Shown in pieces: positions 15,334 to 27,393 of a stretch of 45,856 nt of DNA. Within the stretch, counting starts at the first letter, position 1, and each line of letters starts with the position of its first letter. Source of the stretch: Candidatus Altimarinota bacterium (lineage in GTDB: Bacteria > Patescibacteriota > Gracilibacteria > UBA4473); assembly GCA_018608565.1 (NCBI GenBank), contig JABAZT010000010.1:1-45856 (forward strand). Direction: 5' to 3'. The translations under genes were made by a program, and so were the position numbers. The notes below the pieces were generated by a model. That model was not told the DNA's origin and did no database searches. It worked only from the letters and a program-made list of their open reading frames with translations.

Positions 15334-15852
15334 ATGAAATCTGTACCTTCTGCGACTTCTAGTTTCAATCCAGGGAAGCGACTCTACCACTGGAAAGCCT
15401 ATGACTATCATCCACATGATAGAGGTCTGATTTGGCATATTTGTTTTGGGTTGGTTGTTTTTGGTGCGGCTGTTTGGTCGTGGTTTTATGGTGGTGATTT
15501 GGGGTGGTTGTCTAGTTTTGGGATATTTCTAGGAGCGGCTGTTTATTTTTGGATTCACAAAGATGGTAATGAAGTGCATCAAATTGAATTTTTTGAGTTT
15601 GGTTTTATGGTTGATGGTCGAGATTTTTTCCCTTGGGATAAGGTTGTTGGGTATTGGATTTTGTTTAATGAGACGGTTAGTGTGATCAAGTTTGTTCAGC
15701 GGAGTCGTATGGGAGAGCAAGAGCTAACCCTGCAACTAGGTGATGCACAGCTGACAAAGCTGAAACAATCGCTCAAAAAAATAGAGATATCAGAATTGGG
15801 TAATCGAAATGAAGCGGTGCTGGATCTGTGGCTTCGTGTATTTAAATTGTAA
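15334..15852 (+). CDS. Two-TM protein with a C-terminal PH-like region
   Basis: The 172-residue product has a short cytoplasmic N-terminus containing YHWKAYDYHPHDRG, two membrane helices with almost no loop (about residues 33-51 and 56-75), and a 95-residue soluble C-terminus. That tail starts with IEFFEFGFMVDGRDFFPWDKVVGYWI, a strand-rich pattern like bacterial PH domains. I recall similar small 'aromatic motif, two-TM, PH-like' proteins beside secretion-like clusters in CPR genomes, but this is memory, not a search. It opens an operon whose next gene starts 6 nt after its stop. Confidence 0.75.
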   Translation: MKSVPSATSSFNPGKRLYHWKAYDYHPHDRGLIWHICFGLVVFGAAVWSWFYGGDLGWLSSFGIFLGAAVYFWIHKDGNEVHQIEFFEFGFMVDGRDFFPWDKVVGYWILFNETVSVIKFVQRSRMGEQELTLQLGDAQLTKLKQSLKKIEISELGNRNEAVLDLWLRVFKL

Positions 15853-15858
15853 TTTATT

Positions 15859-18693
15859 ATGGTGACTCCTATTCCTTCTCTGACACCTAGTGTGACGCCT
15901 CCTGTGGCTTCGGGGGTGGGTGTGTCTGCGGAGGTTTTTGATCCTCATAGTGTTGATAATATAACGAATTTTTTTTCTAAAAAACTATTGTCACTTCGGG
16001 ATGAAATGCCGGTTGGTGACGAGCTAGATGAAATGATGGAAAAATATGAGGCATACTGTAGAGAACAGGAAGCTCGTAATGGTTTGTTGGAGTCTTTTAA
16101 TAAGGCAAGAGTTAAAAAGAAGGTCTTGTACCTTCGGGATACTATTGATACAGATCGTGAGACGATGGAGGATTTTATTTTTGATCTTCAGAAAAAGGGG
16201 AAGGTGTTGTTAACTAACCCTCTTGATAAATCAGGTCCAAAGCTAGTTTTTAATAATCCTATTGCTCCTATTTTTAGTGGGAAAGGTGGAATATCTGATT
16301 CTGGTCCAAAAAAAGGATATACAGAGCACTTGATAGAAGAGAGTGAAAAAATAAATGAGGCAAAAACGGGGGCAGAGGTTTTTTATAATGGAGAGTTATA
16401 TATGGAGGGGGTTCGGAGTATTCAGAATGCTTTGGAAGAGGAGTATAATCTGAAACCAGATAATATACCGGCATTAATATCACAGGTCTCAGCTAATGAG
16501 CATGTTCCCGATGGGTTAGCGGATTCATTGAGTTCGTATGAATCGACTCTTGCGGCACTGGATAGTTCGCATGAAAGATTTTTATCAATTCCGATTGAAG
16601 ATTTGGAGGCCTATAAGACAGAGCATAAGGAGTTGGTTCGTCTTTCTGGGACTATGCTATCGACCTTGATTCAGGCCTCTCATTATAAAGCGGCTATGAA
16701 TGAGGACATGAAAGGTGTTAGTAGTATGGAATTTATAAAGGGTGCTTTGGCAAGTGCTTATGTGCTTACTCTGGGGAAGGGAGTTACGGATAAGGTTATG
16801 AGTCGTCATAAAGATGCTTTTACGAGAGAGTGGAGTGGAATTGGTAAAGTTAAATTTTATCCAAAAACAGGTCTTGGTGATCTTGTACGAGGGGGGCGTG
16901 CTGATGGTGCTAAGGGGGTAAAGAATGCTTTTGTAGATCGTTGGCCTAATATGCTGATCTGGACTGTGGCGATAGCGGATCAGACGAAGTATGACTATCT
17001 TCCGGGGAGGGGACTGCATGTGTTGGCAAATGTTGCCAAGCGAGATTATAATTTTTGGGGAAATGTTCTGGGGCTTCCTATTACGTTACTTGGTGATAGA
17101 GGGGGCGCTTTGGATCAGCTAAATAATGCGGGACGAGCGTTTGCTTTTATTGAGCCGTTGAAGAGTGACATTCATGGTGGTTTGACGATCGATGAGATTG
17201 TCGACTATCTGAAAGATGATGAGTTGATTACGGCGCTTGAAATGATAGATGAAGGAAAAGGAGATGCCCTGTATAATGATCCAAAGTATTCAGGGCTTCG
17301 AGATAAAGTTATCCGTACGAGTCATCTGATAGAGATCGGGGCTATGGGGACTATCGAAGGAAAGGGGCTGCGACGTGAGGAAGACAAGCAGGTGACAAAG
17401 GAGGGATATCGAAGACATATTAAGTCGAGTATCTTTCATAATTTTGAACAAGGGTTCGCGAAACACGATAAAAGTGGGAAAAGTTTTAATGAGACGATGG
17501 CGGCGCGTTTTGGAGGTATGACCGATAAATATATGGCACAACGTCGATATGAATATAAGCTCAATGTGGCCAAGAATAAACCAGAAGAACTAGAAAAAAC
17601 ATTTAATCCATTTAGGGATATTAATCTAGATCTAGACGAGTTTGGAATTACAAGGCATGTAGATCGACATAATGAGGAACGGTATAGTAAGACTCCGTTT
17701 AATCTAATAGCTAGTAATTTGTCTGTTTCAAAGGTTATTTATATGGGGCTTATGTGGTCACATGCTTTTACGGGCATTCGGGTTCTTTCTTCTAAGCTTG
17801 GTTTTTCTAAGATTACTAAATTTTTTACGCAATTGTTTACAAATCCTTCGGCTTCTTTTGCTACGTTGTTTAGCGGAAGGTTGACGAAGCGTGGTCCAGA
17901 AGGCGATCCGTCAAAGAAGGATCCGCCTGGTTCTCTGAAGAAAAGACTTTCGTTGAGAGAAAGAAATAAGATGTTTGGGGATAAAGTTGTTATTACAGAG
18001 GGGGTTTTGCCACATAAAATTCGACCAGAGAAGCTAGTAAAGAAGGTTCCATTGACGGAAATACTAAAAGCATTTGATAAAAAAGGGTTTACTTTTGGTT
18101 CTACGCTGGGGGGTAAATCTTTTGATAAGGATTTAAAAATTCCTCGTGAGGAATTGGGTAGGTTTGAAAGATTGTTGTGTGATAAGAAATTAGATAAGAC
18201 TGATAGCTATGTCGATATTGAAGACCCTGGTCCAGTGAGTGTCACGGATCTTTATGATGCTTTGATGGAAGATCTTGCACTTTGTTCGAATCCTGAGGTC
18301 AAAATAGGGGAAGAACGTCAAAGACGATTTAGAGATGGACATGAGCAGATGAAGACCCTTGCGGGGCTCGCGGCAGATGAGGATGCGAAGGAGGTTACTA
18401 TATCGGTAGAGATAGAGGGGAAATCAGCGGTGAAGTACAAGATAGATTGTGGGAAGAAGGCCACTGCTAATAAAAAATCTATTGAGAAATGGGGGAAGCA
18501 AAAGACTAATGATAAAAGATATAAAAAATCTAAGAGCAATATAATCTGTACCGCAGTGGCGGAGGGGGATGATATTACTGATAAAACATCATCTGATTTG
18601 GCTATTGGGTTTGATGTGGATAATGGATACTGGACTGTGTATCATGGGAGTGGAGAGCAAAAAGAGGTGACAAATATTACGGTTGCTCGTTAG
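15859..18693 (+). CDS. Large hypothetical protein, 944 aa
   Basis: No known domain is recognised. The first 25 residues are rich in Pro, Thr, Ser and Val (PIPSLTPSVTPPVASG) and look unstructured. The next 600 residues are mainly helical and charged. Around 625-665 a moderately hydrophobic stretch (IYMGLMWSHAFTGIRVL) could be one membrane helix or a buried helix. The tail after about 690 is basic and then alpha/beta, ending in a strand-rich segment (LAIGFDVDNGYWTVYHGSG). There is no signal peptide. Only 6 nt separate it from the two-TM gene, so the two are co-translated. Position before a VirB6-like gene suggests a cytoplasmic part of the same membrane assembly; that is inference. Confidence 0.8.
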   Translation: MVTPIPSLTPSVTPPVASGVGVSAEVFDPHSVDNITNFFSKKLLSLRDEMPVGDELDEMMEKYEAYCREQEARNGLLESFNKARVKKKVLYLRDTIDTDRETMEDFIFDLQKKGKVLLTNPLDKSGPKLVFNNPIAPIFSGKGGISDSGPKKGYTEHLIEESEKINEAKTGAEVFYNGELYMEGVRSIQNALEEEYNLKPDNIPALISQVSANEHVPDGLADSLSSYESTLAALDSSHERFLSIPIEDLEAYKTEHKELVRLSGTMLSTLIQASHYKAAMNEDMKGVSSMEFIKGALASAYVLTLGKGVTDKVMSRHKDAFTREWSGIGKVKFYPKTGLGDLVRGGRADGAKGVKNAFVDRWPNMLIWTVAIADQTKYDYLPGRGLHVLANVAKRDYNFWGNVLGLPITLLGDRGGALDQLNNAGRAFAFIEPLKSDIHGGLTIDEIVDYLKDDELITALEMIDEGKGDALYNDPKYSGLRDKVIRTSHLIEIGAMGTIEGKGLRREEDKQVTKEGYRRHIKSSIFHNFEQGFAKHDKSGKSFNETMAARFGGMTDKYMAQRRYEYKLNVAKNKPEELEKTFNPFRDINLDLDEFGITRHVDRHNEERYSKTPFNLIASNLSVSKVIYMGLMWSHAFTGIRVLSSKLGFSKITKFFTQLFTNPSASFATLFSGRLTKRGPEGDPSKKDPPGSLKKRLSLRERNKMFGDKVVITEGVLPHKIRPEKLVKKVPLTEILKAFDKKGFTFGSTLGGKSFDKDLKIPREELGRFERLLCDKKLDKTDSYVDIEDPGPVSVTDLYDALMEDLALCSNPEVKIGEERQRRFRDGHEQMKTLAGLAADEDAKEVTISVEIEGKSAVKYKIDCGKKATANKKSIEKWGKQKTNDKRYKKSKSNIICTAVAEGDDITDKTSSDLAIGFDVDNGYWTVYHGSGEQKEVTNITVAR

Positions 18694-18778
18694 TCTGAGG
18701 AAATCTTTTGGGATATGTTTGTATCTTGTTTCTCTTGTTTTTGTAGTGGCTTTGTTCCTTGTGTGATGGGTCTTTTTC

Positions 18779-18787
18779 TGGTATAAT
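18779..18787 (+). promoter_or_regulatory. Extended -10 of the VirB6-like gene, probably leaderless
   Basis: TGGTATAAT is a perfect extended -10 and ends 8 nt before the ATG. A weak TTGTGT lies 17 bp upstream. Confidence 0.6.
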
Positions 18788-18795
18788 GGGGGGAA

Positions 18796-20982
18796 ATGTT
18801 GACGCAAATTTTTGATTTCGGTTTGTCACTTCTGAGGCAAAAAAGCTTTAAGGCTTTGGGGTGTGTTTTTGTGTTATTGATAGGGGTAGGGATTATGGAT
18901 CCTTTCTCGGTGGCATATGCGGAACGAGATGTGATGGAGGATATTGCCAAAATTCTTTCGCACTTGGTGGACTTGATTATGGTGGTTTCTTTGATTGCGA
19001 TTGATGTGACAGGGCCTTTGTTTGGGACGGAGTTATTGACGGGACCAGATGTAATGCAAGAGGGAATATTGCCGATGTGGGTGATTGTTCGGAATATGGT
19101 GAATATTGGTTTTGTGATGATGATCTTGTATATTGCGTTGGCGAATCTTTTTACTATTGGAGGGGCGCTTGGTGGTAATAACTGGACGATAAAAGAAAAA
19201 CTTCCGCGACTGATTGGGGCTATGATATTGATCAATTTTTCATTGTGGGGATTTAAGGTGGTTCTTGATGCGGTATATGTTGGGACGGTGGCGGTGTTCT
19301 CTATCTCAGATAATGTTCTGGGGGATCAGGTGACGTATAAGAAGATAATGTTTGAGCAAATGGTTTGTGATAAGGACTCTTTGCAGACGGATGAAGAATA
19401 TGAGCATTGTAAGGAAATTTATAAAGATGATCATGAACTTAAGGTGTATGAATTTGTAAATAAAATGCTCTGTGGGAATCAGCATAAGGATGCGGATTCT
19501 TCTAAGTGTTCGTTTGGGTATCTGTCTGAGACCTATATGACTCAGGCTCTCGGGCGAGAGGATGATCGAGTGACCAATCCTGGACGAAATATCATGGCGG
19601 CGGTAGGGGTGCATGTGATGAAGATTCAGGCGCTTCCGTCTATCATTGCAAGGGCCGGGACCGCAAAATATGATGCCTTTAGATTGGTGGATACGGTTAC
19701 GTTTTCAGCGATATTGGGGTTGATATATGCGCTGTCTTTTGTGGCGGTGTTGGTGGCGATGTTGGTGCGGATGGTTTTTCTGTGGATTGTTATGATTGCG
19801 TCTCCATTGATCGTGGCAGATATGGTTATGGGAACTGGATGGACTAATACTTTTACGGAGAAGATTACGAATACGATTATAATGCCAATCAAGGTTGCAG
19901 CCGCGTTTACGGTGAGTTTTCTCATGGTGGCAAATCTCCAGCATATTGCGACGAAGGATGATATTGCGATTGCTTTTGTGACTGGAGATGCGGTGTTTAA
20001 ATTTGGTCCGTCGAGTATTGATCTACTCTGGAAGGTTGCGACTATTATGGCGTTTTGGTTTGCGTTGTGGGCGGCGTTTGATAAGACCGTGGCTCAGAAT
20101 ATAGTGGGAGGGGTTAAGACTTTTGGTGAAAATATTGGGAAGGCGGCATGGACTGGAGTGCAAAATGCACCTGTGTTGCCGTTTGGAAAAATGGATGAAG
20201 ATGGAAATAGGCAGGGGTTGGCGCTTAATTCAGTTACGAAGATTGATGATATGTTGTTGGAGGGGGCGAATAAATTTGAGCAGGAGCAGACTCGGAAACT
20301 GAGAGATCGTTTTGGGCTTTTGGATAGTACTGCAAATACTTTTTTGAAAGCATCAACTGGTTTGAAGGTAGCTGTTCGGAAGTTACCTACTATAACTAAA
20401 GTGATGGATGAATTTAGATCTCAAAAAGGGAGTGCTGAGGTTTTGAAGGATTCTCAGGCACGTAGTCGATTTGGTGAAGCGTTTGCGGGTAATACTGAAA
20501 TTACGCATGCGACTGAAATTGGTAATGCAATTACTAATTTGAAGGTTTCTTCAGCAGATACTCCGTCAGATATTAAGCGTAAATTGAAAGCAGCCTTGGT
20601 TGCTGCGAGTGTTCCAGCTCGAGATATTGATTTTGTATTGAATGGACTTGGGGCTGGGAGTTCAGCTCCTTCGGCGAAGACTGTTGGGGACAATGAACAT
20701 GTTGATAGTTTGTTTGAATCAGATAAGGCAAATTTTGTTAAAAGAGATGATAAAACTTCTAATTTTACGGTTACTTATTCGGGGAATACTCACACGGATA
20801 TTCAAAATGATATTAATGGAGTTAAGGATAAATTTAGGGCAGATCCAAATATGGAACAAGAATTGTTTGCACATATTGAAAGAATGTTAGAACAGGCAAA
20901 TGTTCCTAATCCTGAAAAATATGAAATATCGTATAATAAAACGAGTAAGGAGTATGAGATTAAAGAAAAGCCTGGCTCATAG
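18796..20982 (+). CDS. Polytopic membrane protein, VirB6/TrbL-like
   Basis: The 728-residue product begins with a hydrophobic segment ending in VAYA-ERD (about 20-43), a possible signal peptide. Hydrophobic stretches follow at about 51-72, 91-124, 133-168, 300-340, 361-380 and 408-428. Between the third and fourth stretches is a 130-residue hydrophilic loop with four cysteines (191, 205, 226, 238), suggestive of disulfides or metal binding outside the membrane. The last 300 residues are soluble, charged and probably cytoplasmic. This layout, and the segment KLPRLIGAMILINFSLWGFK, resemble VirB6/TrbL channel proteins of type IV secretion systems. No VirB4, VirB11 or VirD4 ATPase is in the window, so a conjugation role is not supported. 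A terminator follows at 21044. Confidence 0.75.
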   Translation: MLTQIFDFGLSLLRQKSFKALGCVFVLLIGVGIMDPFSVAYAERDVMEDIAKILSHLVDLIMVVSLIAIDVTGPLFGTELLTGPDVMQEGILPMWVIVRNMVNIGFVMMILYIALANLFTIGGALGGNNWTIKEKLPRLIGAMILINFSLWGFKVVLDAVYVGTVAVFSISDNVLGDQVTYKKIMFEQMVCDKDSLQTDEEYEHCKEIYKDDHELKVYEFVNKMLCGNQHKDADSSKCSFGYLSETYMTQALGREDDRVTNPGRNIMAAVGVHVMKIQALPSIIARAGTAKYDAFRLVDTVTFSAILGLIYALSFVAVLVAMLVRMVFLWIVMIASPLIVADMVMGTGWTNTFTEKITNTIIMPIKVAAAFTVSFLMVANLQHIATKDDIAIAFVTGDAVFKFGPSSIDLLWKVATIMAFWFALWAAFDKTVAQNIVGGVKTFGENIGKAAWTGVQNAPVLPFGKMDEDGNRQGLALNSVTKIDDMLLEGANKFEQEQTRKLRDRFGLLDSTANTFLKASTGLKVAVRKLPTITKVMDEFRSQKGSAEVLKDSQARSRFGEAFAGNTEITHATEIGNAITNLKVSSADTPSDIKRKLKAALVAASVPARDIDFVLNGLGAGSSAPSAKTVGDNEHVDSLFESDKANFVKRDDKTSNFTVTYSGNTHTDIQNDINGVKDKFRADPNMEQELFAHIERMLEQANVPNPEKYEISYNKTSKEYEIKEKPGS

Positions 20983-21043
20983 TGTTAGGGGGTGTGGGAG
21001 TAGAGGATGGATCTGTGGTTATGTAGAGATGAGCTTGAGGTTG

Positions 21044-21071
21044 GAGCAGGGTTTATTCCTGCTCTTTTTTT
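21044..21071 (+). terminator. Intrinsic terminator after the VirB6-like gene
   Basis: GAGCAGG and CCTGCTC form a perfect 7-bp stem with a 7-nt loop, followed by seven T. Confidence 0.9.
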
Positions 21072-21261
21072 AAATCTTTTTATTTATTTTTATAGTTTAT
21101 TTATTTTTATTTTCATAGGACTTATTCTTTGTTTTTTGTTTTAATTTTACTTATAAGTAAAAAAACATAGAGTCAGAGATAGTATTGAATTATCTTGTTT
21201 TTTTGTGGGTGGAAGGATGGTCTGTTTAAGACGAATGAAACTTCCATTTTTGCCTGAAATC

Positions 21262-21270
21262 TGGTATAAT
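21262..21270 (+). promoter_or_regulatory. Extended -10 of the 2028-aa gene
   Basis: TGGTATAAT is identical to the box before the VirB6-like gene. It lies 36 nt before the ATG, so this mRNA should have a leader of about 30 nt. Confidence 0.6.
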
Positions 21271-21306
21271 TAGGGGATTATTATCTGTCGTATTAGATAT
21301 TTCTAA

Positions 21307-24300
21307 ATGAAATTACTCAAACACTTAGATCCAAATACAAAAAATCGAGATTCTCGATGGGTCTTTATGAGTATGGATTCGGATAAGATTGATGAGTTAG
21401 TGGATAGGGATATTCCGCTTAAGCCCTATAAGTTTCGGGTGAAGCATCTCAAGATGCTCGAAAAACAAAAAGGGGATTTGGATGTGCGAGACCGAGTTCG
21501 GATCAATGAAATTGCAGAATATTATGTGAGTTTGTTTGCGAATGATAAGGCTGATGGGTTGCTGCCTTCTCGGATGGCGTTTGAGTTTTATAACTCTTCG
21601 TTGTTTTCATCTTTGAGTTTGAAGCTTCAGAGACAGGTCACGCATTTATTTGATAAGAAGCGGGATAGTTTTGTAGCGTTATCGAACAAAAAACCTGGAG
21701 ATATGTTTGATACTGAGATTGTCCAAGCTACTCGAATGTTTCGGGTGTATCAGGTTCGAGGTACTGAATTTCGTGATAAGATTCTCAATACGGCCGTTGA
21801 AACGCTGCAATCCAAGTTGGTCGAGAGAGCCCAAGATCTGATGGCTGGATATACTATTACTGGATCGGGCACTACGAGTCGTATTGATCCGATAAGTCCA
21901 GCGACACCTGCGCTCTCATATGACAAACGATTTTTTCTTTTGGAGGTATATAGATTGTTTCCTCGAGCTGAATTTTGGTTGGATCGAAGTCAGACAGATC
22001 ACTCGGATCCGAGTGTTAAAAAATCTGATAAACCCAAAAAACCTGGGGCTCAGTTTGATAAGCTGAAACAGATGGCAGCGCTTAATATGGCACATGTCAT
22101 AGAGCAGATGACGGATGGGGCTGATGGAGAAAAAAATTCGGCATTGATGATGATGTTCTGGGATATGTTGGAGTTATGGATGGAAGAAGATCCAACAACG
22201 TTTAGTGGTCTTGGGGTTACTGAAATACAAAAAGATCAGATTGTTCGGATGGTGGAGCGGGGGAATGTGGCGCAGTTTTTGGGGTGGGCTAAGTCTTGGC
22301 TCTATGCTGGTAACAAGGTCCTCCTTCCGATGCATATCCATGCACTCAATCAGATAAAAGAAACGCACTATGAATCGATCGATCAGGATGATCCTGTAGA
22401 TGAACTCAAAGCCCTAGCAGAAGAACGTCTAAAGGGAGGGGATAAATGGAAATCAGTTGTGGATGAGATTGAAGAGCTGGAAAAAAAAATTAGAGATACA
22501 GAAAAAGAGGAAGTTAGTAAAGTTATTGGGAGTAGTGATTTTCTGTCATCGGAAAAAGCCTCTGAACTTGAGTCTAAATATAGAAAAGCAGAACAGACAC
22601 AAAAAAAAGTAGAAGATGAATTTTTATTGAAAGAAGCGGGAACTCCACTTGATAAATTTATTAAGGGATTTGAGGCTTGGAGGACAAAATCAAAGAGCAG
22701 CAGTCCTTCAGTCTTTAGATCTATTGAGGCGTCTACTATTTCTCCAGCGATTATTATAAGACTTAACGAAGATTTTACGTTATCAGCCTCTGAGCTAGAG
22801 TCCAAAGTTATCACTACTGGTGCTACGAAAGGGAGTGCTGAGTATTACAAGCAAATGAAGCGTCTGGCGGAACAGCAATTGAAAGACTTTCAAAAAGCTC
22901 TAAATGATGTAGTCCGTCTTACTCGGAAAGAATTAGAGAATACCAGTACGAGAAAAACAAGTTTAACGGATGCAGTTTTATCGAGTAATGAGCAAAAATA
23001 TCAATCAGAGGTGGATGAATTTCAGGCAATTATGGATGGACTTACGTCTCATCTTGGTTCCGTGTCATCGGCAACAGATAAAACTAAGACGGCAGGAACC
23101 TCAATCCTGGAGGCAGCCAATCAGAAATCATCAAAAGAGGTGGAAAATCTGACTCAACGAAAAAATGAATTGGAGGAAAAACTAGGGGTTTCTAAAAGAG
23201 AGCAGAAAAAAATTCAAGCTCGTTTTGATTTGTTTAATGATCCTACAGGAAATGCTACAGAGTTACTGGGGAAATATAGTGAAGGTCTCAAGAAAAGAGC
23301 TCGATCTGGAGGACTATATGCAGCAGATATGGTGGCTTTGTTTAATGATGATATTGATGGTGATTATAAGATAGCGCCTGAACCGTATACAGGTACGGAT
23401 CCAAAAGAAAAAGAAAAACATGACATAGCTGAAAGTACAAATTTATTGGCTCGAGTGTATTCGGATGCTGAGATAAATGGGCTGAATAAGGATGAGTTGA
23501 CGGAGGAGGATCGTGTCAATCATTCTTTTAAAAAAGGATATAAAGAAGTTTTAACTGAATTCAGAAAAGATTTTAATGATGTTTTGGACGAATTACTTGA
23601 TGGTTCGAAAATTGATGATTTCTTTCGGGATAAAAATTTACTGATTGATCATCCTGATAGATTTTCTGTTTGGAATAAAGCGTTGGATCAACTCTTGGGG
23701 TATGATGCAATTCTTAGTGAGTTTGATGAGCCTGGTTATAGTGGATTGGATGATTATGTAGGTTTCTATAAAGAACGAGGGAAAACCCCACAAATTGCAG
23801 CATTGTTGGATGGAGCCATTGCGGCGAATAGAAATAAAATTATTGGTTTGATTCGGACTGGTTTTGAGGCTTCGAGTCCTGACTTTAGTCGAGCGGATCT
23901 CAAGGATTTTGCGGCACAGTATCACCGATTTCATTCGAGTTTGGAACTGTCGGATGAATATAAACAACTACAACAGGATCGAGCAGATTTTGAAAAAGAA
24001 AGACACCAACTGGATCTCCAGTCGAATGAGATTCAGGGAGAAGTTGATGCCTTATTTGGGATAAAAGAATTGGAACCTATTTGGCAGAAATTGGAGCCGT
24101 TTATTCAGTTTGAAGGTCATGATTGGGATGTTGAAACTTTTGATTTGGATACGGCAAAAGAAATTAAACAATTAGTTTTTGATCCTGATTTTTTGTCCAA
24201 GGCTAGTGACCCTGATGCTCAGGCAGCTTGGTATAATGAGGAAAAACTAAAGATACAAGAAAAGCGAACAAAGCTTAAGAATGATGCTCGATCTACGGAA

Positions 24301-27300
24301 TATGATGAAATTAGGTCTAAATTATTGAAGGCTCTTTTTGATACATCATTGGGTTCTCCTACTGGATATTTTGAAACAGGTGGTGGACGATGGGTTGCAG
24401 CAAGAAAAGAGTTATATGATCGTCTGGATGGAATTAGTGGAGTAAATCTAAAGAAAGAAATTCCTGATTTTGATCTAAATTTGTTGCTCGATGAAGTAAT
24501 GGAGCTGTCCCTGAACTATAAGGGGAGAGGGGAGATAACAGATGTCTTGGAAGACTATAAAGAAATCCTCATCAGTGGAGAAGATCAAGGTACTCCAGGG
24601 AAGGAAACACTGAAAGAGGTTGAACTCCAGCTGGCACCTGTGAAGTCTGGGATGGAGCAGGCGATGAATATTCATAATCAAGAACTTTCAAAAATTTTAC
24701 AGGAATTGAAAGATGATCCAGAAGGTCAACAATATGCTTTGAAAGCACAAGTTTTGTATGGACTCAAGGAACTATGTCCTTCGCTTCGAGATAGTATTGC
24801 TTCTGCTGATGCTTTATTGGACTATGTGGTTTCGGATAAGCCTGACTTTAGGGCGGCGTATATAAATAATCTTCTCAGTTATGTAACGGTGCTGGAGGGT
24901 AAATATGTTCAGTGTCGGCAAGAAATGGCATCTGGGAATACTATTCATGCGAATAATCAAATTTTTGATTCGGTGGTTCGTCTGACTGGAGAGGTGCTTG
25001 TGGCCTTTGATGTTACGTCTGGAGCGTGGAAGGATAATTTGGAGGTTTTGAATGAACAACACCGGAATATTCCTAAGGCTGTACAAGTACTCAAAAATGA
25101 ATTTGGACTATATGGGCCGGATGCGGAAGAGACTGCAAAGAAACGATATGGAGAATTTAGAGAAAAGTTTGAGGCTAAACACAAGGCGTATCGGACAGAA
25201 TTGGATTCTGTTTTGAGAACTATTAATAAAAAAGCGAAAGAATTTGGAGGTGATGATGATCAATTTTTTCAGTTATTTGGTGCAACAAGAGAGGATATAA
25301 TTCAAGTCTATCATGAACTGATGGGTAAGGCCGATGGATATGAAACTGCTGCAGCACGTTATTCCGATACAGATTTTTGGTCTGATTGGATGGATAGATA
25401 TAAGGATCCAAAAAAACGAGGTTCGGCATTGGATGATTTTGCTTATTGGGATGATATTAAGTCTCTTGAGGCTGAGATGGAACGTCAGACAAAAGGATTT
25501 TCAGATTGGAGAAAAGATCTGGTTGATCAAGAAAAAGCTATAAATAGGGGACCGGCGGTATATTTTCGGCATGTATCGATTCGATCGATTATTGAAATGT
25601 TTAAGGACTCCTATGAACTGGCTTCTCGTCGAGTAGAACGTCGGGTGGAACGAGATAAAGCGGATCTTGGGAAGGCTATTTTTGGAGATACGGGGGTATT
25701 TGGACTTGGGTATGAGTGGGATCGGAAGTCTACTGAAGAAGAGGAGACTCGAGTGGAAGACTATAAGAAGCAACATAAACGAAAAAACATGTGGGAACTG
25801 CGTAGTTCGCTTTATGATCTTGGTGAAAATCGGATTGATAAAGATGAAGTTAGAGCCTTGATTGATCTATTGGTGGATATGGGGACGATGCGTTGGGATG
25901 ATCCGATGTTTTGGAAAGTGCTCAATCGATTGAATAGAGATAGAATTGGGATGATAATTGATATTGATTATCTGAGGAAGCAGGATATGGGTACGATTCG
26001 GGATCAAGTTAGAACCGCTTGTGGAGCTATTTGGGATGATTATGTATTTAAGGGGTGGGATGATAGTCTTGATGGAAAACACAAAAGTGCGGTCGATATT
26101 GTACAAAAAGAATTTAAGGAAATGGAGGCGATGAATGGACGGCCTGAACTTTTGGCTTCTATGCTTCGAAAATGGCAGGAAGGAACGGTGGATGAGACGG
26201 TTAGTCCAGAACGTTTTGAGGGAATTTTATTTAATGCTTTTGATCAGGCTAAGATGAATGGAACTCCTGATCAAAGATGGTTCTTCCTTATTATGGCAAT
26301 CACGGTGAAGAGTCCGAGTGGGGCCTCGTTGGTCTCTCCGACAATATTGAGTCGTTTTGATGATTCGCTTTTATCTCGGGTTCCGTATTTTGATTTCTTT
26401 ACAGATAGTGAAACCTCCAAGCTTAATGGTTGGTGTGTTCCAGATGGTACTAAAGGGGCGGAACAAAGACCTTGGTCTGTGGATGATTTTGAGGCTTGGG
26501 GGCAGTTTTTTGGAGCGGATGGTCGATATGGGTTTAATCCTGCGGCAGAAGGAAGTCCAATAAATAGTAAGTGTAATGAGTTTTTCTATAATAATATTTG
26601 TAAATCTCAAAATGCACTGAGTCGAGTGGATCGTAAATCTAAATCAATTGATAAAGAGGCTGATCACGATGATGCACCAATGTGGTTTCAAGGAATGTCT
26701 TGGCTTGCTATGACTCAGGCGCTTAATCAAAGTTCACAGGGTACGGATCTAGTGACACAGGATTTCGGGGCTTCATTGCTTATGGGGTTTGATCACTCAA
26801 TGAGAGCTGCCTATGAGTATATAAAAGAAAATGATGCTATATACGGAGAAGGGCATACTGAATGGAGAGTACAACGAGATGAAGCCTTGCGGAGTGTTTC
26901 TGAGCGGATGAGAGTTGGGTTTGGGGCGTTGAATACCTTGAAAGGGAATTACCATGGTACGGATCGTACTACACCATTGGTACTGGATGATTCGTTTTGG
27001 GATGGGAAAAAAGAAAAACGATATAAACTTGATGCGAGTGATAAACAAATTAATTTTTCGATTCAAGAATTACTTAAAGTTTCGGGAGAGGAGATGGAGG
27101 ACTATAATGGTGTTTGGGATTATCATGGTAGTAAGATGGATCGAGGGACTCACTCTGAGCGAAAAGAGACTAAGGGATATAAAGATAATCTGAAAGTTCT
27201 GAAAAAAATTATTGGTGGTGATGATGGAGGTGATGAAGATGGTCAAATCTCTCATTTTTCAAATCTACAAAAAGTGGAAGAGGTATTGATGAATTATGGA

Positions 27301-27393
27301 CAGAAATATGGAGGGATATCAGGACCTGGAGAGATGTTTCATCGTAAGTATTCAGATAGATCTAGAACTTCTTTTGTAGGAGGAAATCAGTGA
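21307..27393 (+). CDS. Giant soluble hypothetical protein, 2028 aa
   Basis: This single frame is 6.1 kb long. The protein has no signal peptide and no membrane helix, so it is probably cytoplasmic. It is dominated by charged helices. Heptad-like coiled-coil stretches are visible around 385-450 (EELEKKIRDTEKEEVSKV), 610-650 (NLTQRKNELEEKLGVSKREQKK) and 905-940. Between them lie more globular parts with many Trp, Phe and Tyr, especially 1380-1830. The C-terminus is Gly/Asp-rich (GGDDGGDEDGQ) and basic at the very end. I recognise no enzymatic motif, in particular no Walker A. It has its own promoter after a terminator but lies in the same orientation as the VirB6-like gene. A scaffold or cytoplasmic ring of the same machine is a guess. 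Confidence 0.8.
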   Translation: MKLLKHLDPNTKNRDSRWVFMSMDSDKIDELVDRDIPLKPYKFRVKHLKMLEKQKGDLDVRDRVRINEIAEYYVSLFANDKADGLLPSRMAFEFYNSSLFSSLSLKLQRQVTHLFDKKRDSFVALSNKKPGDMFDTEIVQATRMFRVYQVRGTEFRDKILNTAVETLQSKLVERAQDLMAGYTITGSGTTSRIDPISPATPALSYDKRFFLLEVYRLFPRAEFWLDRSQTDHSDPSVKKSDKPKKPGAQFDKLKQMAALNMAHVIEQMTDGADGEKNSALMMMFWDMLELWMEEDPTTFSGLGVTEIQKDQIVRMVERGNVAQFLGWAKSWLYAGNKVLLPMHIHALNQIKETHYESIDQDDPVDELKALAEERLKGGDKWKSVVDEIEELEKKIRDTEKEEVSKVIGSSDFLSSEKASELESKYRKAEQTQKKVEDEFLLKEAGTPLDKFIKGFEAWRTKSKSSSPSVFRSIEASTISPAIIIRLNEDFTLSASELESKVITTGATKGSAEYYKQMKRLAEQQLKDFQKALNDVVRLTRKELENTSTRKTSLTDAVLSSNEQKYQSEVDEFQAIMDGLTSHLGSVSSATDKTKTAGTSILEAANQKSSKEVENLTQRKNELEEKLGVSKREQKKIQARFDLFNDPTGNATELLGKYSEGLKKRARSGGLYAADMVALFNDDIDGDYKIAPEPYTGTDPKEKEKHDIAESTNLLARVYSDAEINGLNKDELTEEDRVNHSFKKGYKEVLTEFRKDFNDVLDELLDGSKIDDFFRDKNLLIDHPDRFSVWNKALDQLLGYDAILSEFDEPGYSGLDDYVGFYKERGKTPQIAALLDGAIAANRNKIIGLIRTGFEASSPDFSRADLKDFAAQYHRFHSSLELSDEYKQLQQDRADFEKERHQLDLQSNEIQGEVDALFGIKELEPIWQKLEPFIQFEGHDWDVETFDLDTAKEIKQLVFDPDFLSKASDPDAQAAWYNEEKLKIQEKRTKLKNDARSTEYDEIRSKLLKALFDTSLGSPTGYFETGGGRWVAARKELYDRLDGISGVNLKKEIPDFDLNLLLDEVMELSLNYKGRGEITDVLEDYKEILISGEDQGTPGKETLKEVELQLAPVKSGMEQAMNIHNQELSKILQELKDDPEGQQYALKAQVLYGLKELCPSLRDSIASADALLDYVVSDKPDFRAAYINNLLSYVTVLEGKYVQCRQEMASGNTIHANNQIFDSVVRLTGEVLVAFDVTSGAWKDNLEVLNEQHRNIPKAVQVLKNEFGLYGPDAEETAKKRYGEFREKFEAKHKAYRTELDSVLRTINKKAKEFGGDDDQFFQLFGATREDIIQVYHELMGKADGYETAAARYSDTDFWSDWMDRYKDPKKRGSALDDFAYWDDIKSLEAEMERQTKGFSDWRKDLVDQEKAINRGPAVYFRHVSIRSIIEMFKDSYELASRRVERRVERDKADLGKAIFGDTGVFGLGYEWDRKSTEEEETRVEDYKKQHKRKNMWELRSSLYDLGENRIDKDEVRALIDLLVDMGTMRWDDPMFWKVLNRLNRDRIGMIIDIDYLRKQDMGTIRDQVRTACGAIWDDYVFKGWDDSLDGKHKSAVDIVQKEFKEMEAMNGRPELLASMLRKWQEGTVDETVSPERFEGILFNAFDQAKMNGTPDQRWFFLIMAITVKSPSGASLVSPTILSRFDDSLLSRVPYFDFFTDSETSKLNGWCVPDGTKGAEQRPWSVDDFEAWGQFFGADGRYGFNPAAEGSPINSKCNEFFYNNICKSQNALSRVDRKSKSIDKEADHDDAPMWFQGMSWLAMTQALNQSSQGTDLVTQDFGASLLMGFDHSMRAAYEYIKENDAIYGEGHTEWRVQRDEALRSVSERMRVGFGALNTLKGNYHGTDRTTPLVLDDSFWDGKKEKRYKLDASDKQINFSIQELLKVSGEEMEDYNGVWDYHGSKMDRGTHSERKETKGYKDNLKVLKKIIGGDDGGDEDGQISHFSNLQKVEEVLMNYGQKYGGISGPGEMFHRKYSDRSRTSFVGGNQ

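What the first reader, a model, noticed from the sequence alone, without database searches (positions are those of the whole stretch)
15334..27393. 12-kb block pairing a VirB6-like membrane protein with 944-aa and 2028-aa unrecognised proteins
Seen: four same-strand genes, comprising a two-TM PH-like protein, a 944-aa mainly helical protein 6 nt behind it, a polytopic protein with a four-Cys extracytoplasmic loop and a large soluble tail, and a 2028-aa soluble coiled-coil protein. Two of the genes have the identical TGGTATAAT box. Known: VirB6/TrbL proteins form the inner-membrane channel of type IV secretion systems. Inference: this could be a reduced or novel CPR envelope machine in which the two giant proteins make a cytoplasmic assembly. 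No ATPase, pilin or relaxase is in the window, so it is not a standard T4SS.
Basis: partly seen in the sequence, partly recalled or inferred. Interest (0 to 1): 0.75.

Follow-up and report, generated by a model that had tools for sequence, protein, structure and literature searches.

The report
Missing VirB6 locus of Gracilibacteria
The four genes are a real, conserved gene block that holds the previously unrecognised channel protein (VirB6) of the type IV secretion system of a large class of ultra-small, host-dependent bacteria, together with a giant partner protein found only in that class.

Summary
In detail: four same-strand genes at 15334-27393. The 728-aa membrane protein (P0003) is a VirB6 homologue. 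No curated model names it, but its family profile matches 169 of 287 Patescibacteria genomes. Outside the class, 32 of 46 such genomes have virB4 within 10 kb downstream on the same strand. In 8 of 9 genomes with a TrbL/VirB6 match above Pfam's cut-off, that very ORF is our match. The window's genome does have a T4SS ATPase: virB4 lies 1.1 kb past the window end on the same contig, PrgI-TrsD on another contig, pilins elsewhere. 'Not a T4SS' was an edge effect. A 2025 survey reported VirB6 as absent in Gracilibacteria; this block fills that gap. Gene order P0001-slot B-VirB6-P0004 recurs in at least six families of the class. P0001 is near-universal and single-copy in the phylum. P0002's slot is kept but its sequence is not. 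The P0004 core is class-specific (21 of 26 class genomes, 0 of 261 outside), all-helical, with no known fold match. Linkage is not absolute: several relatives carry the genes apart. No interface was tested. Best reading: a dispersed Patescibacteria-type T4SS whose extended VirB6 has a lineage-specific giant cytoplasmic partner.

The parts
15334..15852 (+). P0001: 172-aa protein with two N-proximal hydrophobic stretches and a soluble C-terminal domain; near-universal, single-copy Patescibacteria family; not PrgI (a separate PrgI exists in the genome)
15859..18693 (+). P0002: 944-aa protein in a conserved gene slot (500-940 aa in relatives); sequence not conserved, no family match
18796..20982 (+). 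P0003: 728-aa extended VirB6 homologue: N-terminal signal-like segment ending AYA, 7-8 hydrophobic segments, four-Cys loop, 290-aa soluble tail
21307..27393 (+). P0004: 2028-aa protein without signal peptide or TM; C-terminal core (residues about 1225-2000) is a class-specific all-helical domain with a nearly invariant D-H-D motif
18779..18787 (+). TGGTATAAT extended -10-like box before P0003
21262..21270 (+). TGGTATAAT extended -10-like box before P0004
15303..15311 (+). TGCTATAAT extended -10-like box before P0001
45856..45856 (.). Window edge; virB4 (784-aa ORF, minus strand) lies just beyond, at contig C30:46931-49285

Best explanation
The block is the virB6 locus of the chromosomal, Patescibacteria-type T4SS of a Gracilibacteria (Peregrinibacteria/Peribacteria-like) cell. 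P0003 is an extended VirB6, the inner-membrane/periplasmic translocon subunit. By analogy with known T4SSs it works with VirB4 (19.5 kb away on the same contig), PrgI/VirB3 and TrsD (contig C3) and VirB2-like pilins to build a surface channel or pilus used on host or neighbour cells. P0001 is a near-universal Patescibacteria membrane protein that tends to sit near T4SS genes. P0004 is a class-specific giant helical protein, most likely a cytoplasmic partner or scaffold at the base of this VirB6 translocon. P0002 fills a fast-evolving accessory slot. Shown: homology of P0003 to VirB6, conserved gene order, presence of the other T4SS genes, class restriction of P0004. Inferred: joint function, location and role of P0002 and P0004, and secretion activity.
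For: The A1 profile, built only from class members, finds homologues in 169/287 Patescibacteria genomes. In 32 of 46 out-of-class genomes virB4 is within 10 kb downstream on the same strand. In 8 of 9 genomes with an over-cut-off PF04610 TrbL/VirB6 ORF, the same ORF is an A1 match: G207, G162, G282, G075, G137, G110, G093, G310. hhalign of A1 to a virB4-linked ORF that also matches TrbL (E 3e-4) gives probability 98 and E 1e-13. The own VirB4 passes curated model NF045971. PrgI passes PF12666 and lies next to a TrsD-like gene. There are 16 T4SS_pilin matches. Order P0001-B-VirB6-P0004 recurs on one strand in most family members and in families f4, f16, f18, f21, f22.
Against: P0003 itself matches no Pfam or NCBIfam model, and its AlphaFold model (pLDDT 57) has no significant PDB match; VirB6 chains 7o3v_G and 8rtd_L appear only at E about 5. 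In this genome virB6 and virB4 are not adjacent (P0004 end to virB4 19.5 kb), and in many class genomes they lie on different contigs. Family f5 has P0004 next to P0001 but VirB6 elsewhere; G014 and G006 also split the set. No interaction data exist. P0002 has no detectable homologue.
Confidence: 0.72

Rival explanations
1. P0003 is VirB6, but P0002 and P0004 are neighbours with an unrelated job (for example a cytoskeletal or cell-shape scaffold) that merely share the locus.
For: P0004 can sit away from VirB6 (G014, G006, family f5), and is missing or undetectable in about 5 of 26 class genomes that have VirB6.
Against: The order is kept across at least six families of the class at about 16-33% protein identity, on one strand with short gaps; when VirB6 leaves in f5, P0001 and P0004 stay adjacent.
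Confidence: 0.25
2. P0004 (and perhaps P0002) are substrates delivered through the T4SS to host cells rather than parts of it.
For: No signal peptide or TM, very large, fast-evolving outside the core, encoded beside the channel gene.
Against: One copy per genome with a core kept across the whole class; effectors usually vary more and come in sets (general knowledge). No T4SS export signal was tested.
Confidence: 0.15
3. P0003 is not VirB6 but another polytopic envelope protein that shares only a TM-pair motif; the block is a separate Gracilibacteria machine.
For: No direct family match; structure search not significant; many out-of-class matches cover only about 70 residues.
Against: Those same ORFs are the virB4-linked and TrbL-matching ones; profile alignment runs over residues 43-389; the genome has the rest of a T4SS and no other VirB6 candidate was found by PF04610.
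Confidence: 0.07

Closest known systems
VirB6/TrbL (Pfam PF04610), including 'extended VirB6' proteins and Patescibacteria VirB6
   Same: Polytopic membrane protein with large soluble tail; homologous ORFs in other Patescibacteria classes are virB4-linked and match PF04610
   Different: Sequence too divergent for any curated model; class-conserved four-Cys loop; paired with P0004
Chromosomal T4SS of Patescibacteria (PMC12102498; essential in Southlakia epibionticum, PMC10633639)
   Same: VirB4, PrgI, TrsD and VirB2-like pilins present
   Different: Genes dispersed over several loci in this class; virB6 sits with P0001, slot B and P0004 instead of with virB4
Dispersed T4SS islands of Rickettsia (mentioned in PMC12102498)
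   Same: T4SS genes scattered over the chromosome
   Different: Unrelated lineage and different accessory proteins; comparison from the literature only

Membership tests
VirB6/TrbL | Homology to accepted VirB6/TrbL proteins | tested here: met
   Not by direct Pfam hit, but the A1 profile matches the same ORFs that pass PF04610's cut-off in 8 of 9 genomes; hhalign 98%
VirB6/TrbL | Polytopic membrane protein, five or more hydrophobic segments | tested here: met
   7-8 segments in family-averaged hydropathy
VirB6/TrbL | Fold like solved VirB6 | tested here: inconclusive
   Model pLDDT 57; VirB6 chains found only at E about 5
VirB6/TrbL | Encoded with virB4 | tested here: inconclusive
   32/46 out-of-class genomes within 10 kb same strand; in the own genome on one contig but not adjacent; many class genomes unlinked
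Patescibacteria-type T4SS | VirB4 ATPase in the genome | tested here: met
   C30:46931-49285; NF045971 377.8 bits over cut-off 325
Patescibacteria-type T4SS | VirB3/PrgI and TrsD | tested here: met
   PrgI C3:824-1093 over cut-off; TrsD-like neighbour E 8e-10, below its curated cut-off
Patescibacteria-type T4SS | VirB2-like pilins | tested here: met
   16 PF18895 matches in the own genome
Patescibacteria-type T4SS | VirB1, VirB8, coupling protein, relaxase | not tested
Patescibacteria-type T4SS | Translocates a substrate | not testable with these tools
   Needs experiment
PrgI (PF12666) for P0001 | Match to PrgI model | tested here: not met
   No PF12666 match; the genome's PrgI is another gene

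The most novel reading that the evidence does not exclude
Gracilibacteria rebuilt their T4SS around a class-specific cytoplasmic platform: P0004 (1.1-2.0 thousand residues) docks on an extended, disulphide-bearing VirB6, with P0001 as membrane adaptor, and in many relatives the same locus also encodes a Sec-exported giant surface protein, making one host-contact machine unlike any described T4SS.
Probability: 0.25. Interest if true: 0.8.

Novelty: new variant of a known kind. Interest (0 to 1): 0.58.

Why it matters
A 2025 survey of Patescibacteria T4SSs found VirB6 absent in Gracilibacteria and scarce in Microgenomatia and guessed at extreme divergence (PMC12102498). This block supplies the missing Gracilibacteria protein and a profile that also finds virB4-linked candidates in Microgenomatia (Woesebacteria). 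The T4SS is essential for epibiotic growth in the one Patescibacterium tested (PMC10633639), so its parts bear directly on how these bacteria exploit hosts. The class-specific giant partner and the near-universal P0001 family are new, testable candidate components.

Tried and rejected
Pfam, NCBIfam and PHROGs scans of all four proteins: nothing significant. PDB sequence searches with P0003 and with A1, A2, A3: nothing. Foldseek of P0003 and of the P0004 core against PDB, and of the core against BFVD: nothing significant; weak P0004 matches are generic helical-repeat proteins. P0002 by sequence: 0 of 60 relatives beyond itself, and iterative search within the syntenic slot also fails for P0002 itself, although most other slot-B proteins join one family. 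Genome-contig scan with P0003: none confirmed; A2 alignment too divergent for that scan. Considered and rejected: P0001 = PrgI/VirB3 (the own PrgI is elsewhere); P0002 or P0004 = TrsD or VirB4 (both found elsewhere); recoded TGA reading of the block (unnecessary).

Full report
What is there. The window is contig C30:1-45856 of a 1.66-Mb, 99%-complete genome. Gaps are 6 nt (P0001-P0002), 102 nt (P0002-P0003) and 324 nt (P0003-P0004). The boxes TGGTATAAT before P0003 and P0004 are real (3 in the window, 0.49 expected; one is inside P0004) and look like ordinary extended -10 elements.

Taxon. The own VirB4's nearest clearly named records are 'Candidatus Gracilibacteria bacterium M50B91' (62% identity) and 'Candidatus Peribacteria bacterium CH-Oct18-39' (55%), so I call the class Gracilibacteria in the GTDB sense. 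That name is an inference.

P0003 is VirB6. No library names it. P0003 finds relatives in 52 of 60 kin genomes. A profile from 20 members (A1) then hits 169 of 287 genomes spread over the phylum. Two independent checks say what those hits are. First, position: in 46 out-of-class genomes that have both an A1 match and a VirB4 above Pfam's cut-off, virB4 lies within 10 kb downstream on the same strand in 32 (positions). About 1% per genome would be expected by chance. Second, identity: of the nine genomes whose TrbL/VirB6 (PF04610) match exceeds the curated cut-off, eight have that match in the very ORF hit by A1. hhalign aligns A1 (P0003 residues 43-389) with a virB4-linked ORF that itself matches TrbL at probability 98, E 1e-13. 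In a locus that resembles the Saccharibacteria T4SS, with a run of small 2-TM ORFs and a lysozyme-like 1-TM protein, the iterated profile picks the 7-TM ORF upstream of virB4 (L162). In a complete Woesebacteria genome it picks an 8-TM ORF 4 kb upstream of virB4 (L207). The structure route was uninformative: the model has pLDDT 57, and R388 VirB6 chains appear only at E about 5.

Topology. Family-averaged hydropathy gives a signal-like N-terminus (consensus ending AFA), then about seven more segments, with an 87-residue loop at 178-265 holding four Cys in about 17 of 20 members. Conserved Cys suggest that the loop is outside. With an even number of segments between loop and tail, the tail would then be outside too. 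The review PMC12857230 notes that solved VirB6 is mostly periplasmic despite such predictions. So a cytoplasmic tail is unproven.

The rest of the T4SS is in this genome. virB4 lies at C30:46931-49285, minus strand, 1,075 bp past the window end, and passes NF045971 (VirB4-like, CD1110 family) at 377.8 bits against a cut-off of 325. PrgI is at C3:824-1093, followed at once by a 252-aa TrsD-like gene. PrgI with a 240-255-aa neighbour recurs in five relatives. There are 16 T4SS_pilin matches. This fits the statement in PMC12102498 that in Gracilibacteria PrgI and TrsD are not near VirB4 and VirB6 homologues are absent, 'suggesting extreme sequence divergence'. The block supplies that protein.

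Synteny. Order P0001 - slot B - VirB6 - P0004 on one strand is seen in the same family (L031-L034, L036, L040, L041, L045) and in five other families of the class (L048, L130, L131, L174, L176, L180). In the other families slot B is often two genes. Exceptions: G014 has P0004 on another contig, about 12 kb from virB4; G006 splits the set in three; family f5 has P0004 directly behind P0001 with VirB6 tens of kb away or on another contig. In G008 and G010 the P0001 end of the block is near virB4, separated by a large TM protein that in G010 is a P-type ATPase.

P0001. Profile A3 hits 244 of 287 Patescibacteria genomes, almost always once. It is not PrgI. In 28 genomes outside the class with positions for both, it lies within 20 kb of VirB6 or VirB4 in 11, against about 1.7 expected. 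The PH-like reading rests on pattern only; no solved relative was found.

P0004. Its C-terminal core (profile A2) is found in 21 of 26 class genomes and in none of 261 others. AlphaFold gives a confident all-helical model (pLDDT 82, pTM 0.65) with no significant neighbour in PDB or BFVD. A nearly invariant D-H-D motif and scattered invariant R/G/D residues argue for a functional core rather than a passive coil. It has no signal or TM, so it is cytoplasmic unless it is itself a substrate.

P0002. It holds a conserved slot but shows no detectable sequence relative. Slot-B proteins of most family members join one fast-evolving family with one or two hydrophobic stretches; P0002 lacks these.

Reading. 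The best account is a dispersed Patescibacteria-type T4SS whose extended VirB6 travels with a near-universal small membrane protein and, in this class, a giant helical partner. Homology, order and gene content are shown; complex formation and function are inferred.

Noticed in passing
L031, L033, L034, L036/L115, L045, L047, L117, L123, L197 (downstream of P0004): In the same-family relatives whose DNA runs on, P0004 is followed by a homologous, even larger gene, mostly with a Sec-type signal peptide at the start (in G013 an ORF of about 4,000 codons with an FG-GAP repeat). It is absent from the window, where a TPR gene follows. Likely a giant surface protein.
   Followed up: partly
window 15334-15852; phylum-wide: P0001 belongs to a single-copy family present in 244 of 287 Patescibacteria genomes yet unnamed in Pfam/NCBIfam.
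   Followed up: partly
L182:815-2031 (own contig C3) and L183-L187: PrgI and a TrsD-like gene form a conserved pair detached from virB4 in this class.
   Followed up: partly
L112:9886-12606; L120:2260-4932; L124:4456-7068; L125:12336-14990; L126:4254-6896; L041:14211-16850: A large 7-9-TM protein of about 870-910 aa sits near virB4 or the block in several relatives; the L041 copy is a P-type cation ATPase.
   Followed up: no
L188-L192: In family f5 a 1500-1685-aa protein with the P0004 core follows P0001 directly, as if slot B and P0004 were fused or slot B lost; others in f5 have an unmatched 800-1150-aa protein there.
   Followed up: partly
G030, G032, G058 and others: VirB6 matches in some class genomes contain many in-frame TGA codons, consistent with the TGA=Gly code known in parts of this class; the window does not need it.
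   Followed up: no
L163:8597-13796, L168:8276-15276, G250, G302, G319: Two VirB6 paralogues upstream of virB4 in several other classes.
   Followed up: no
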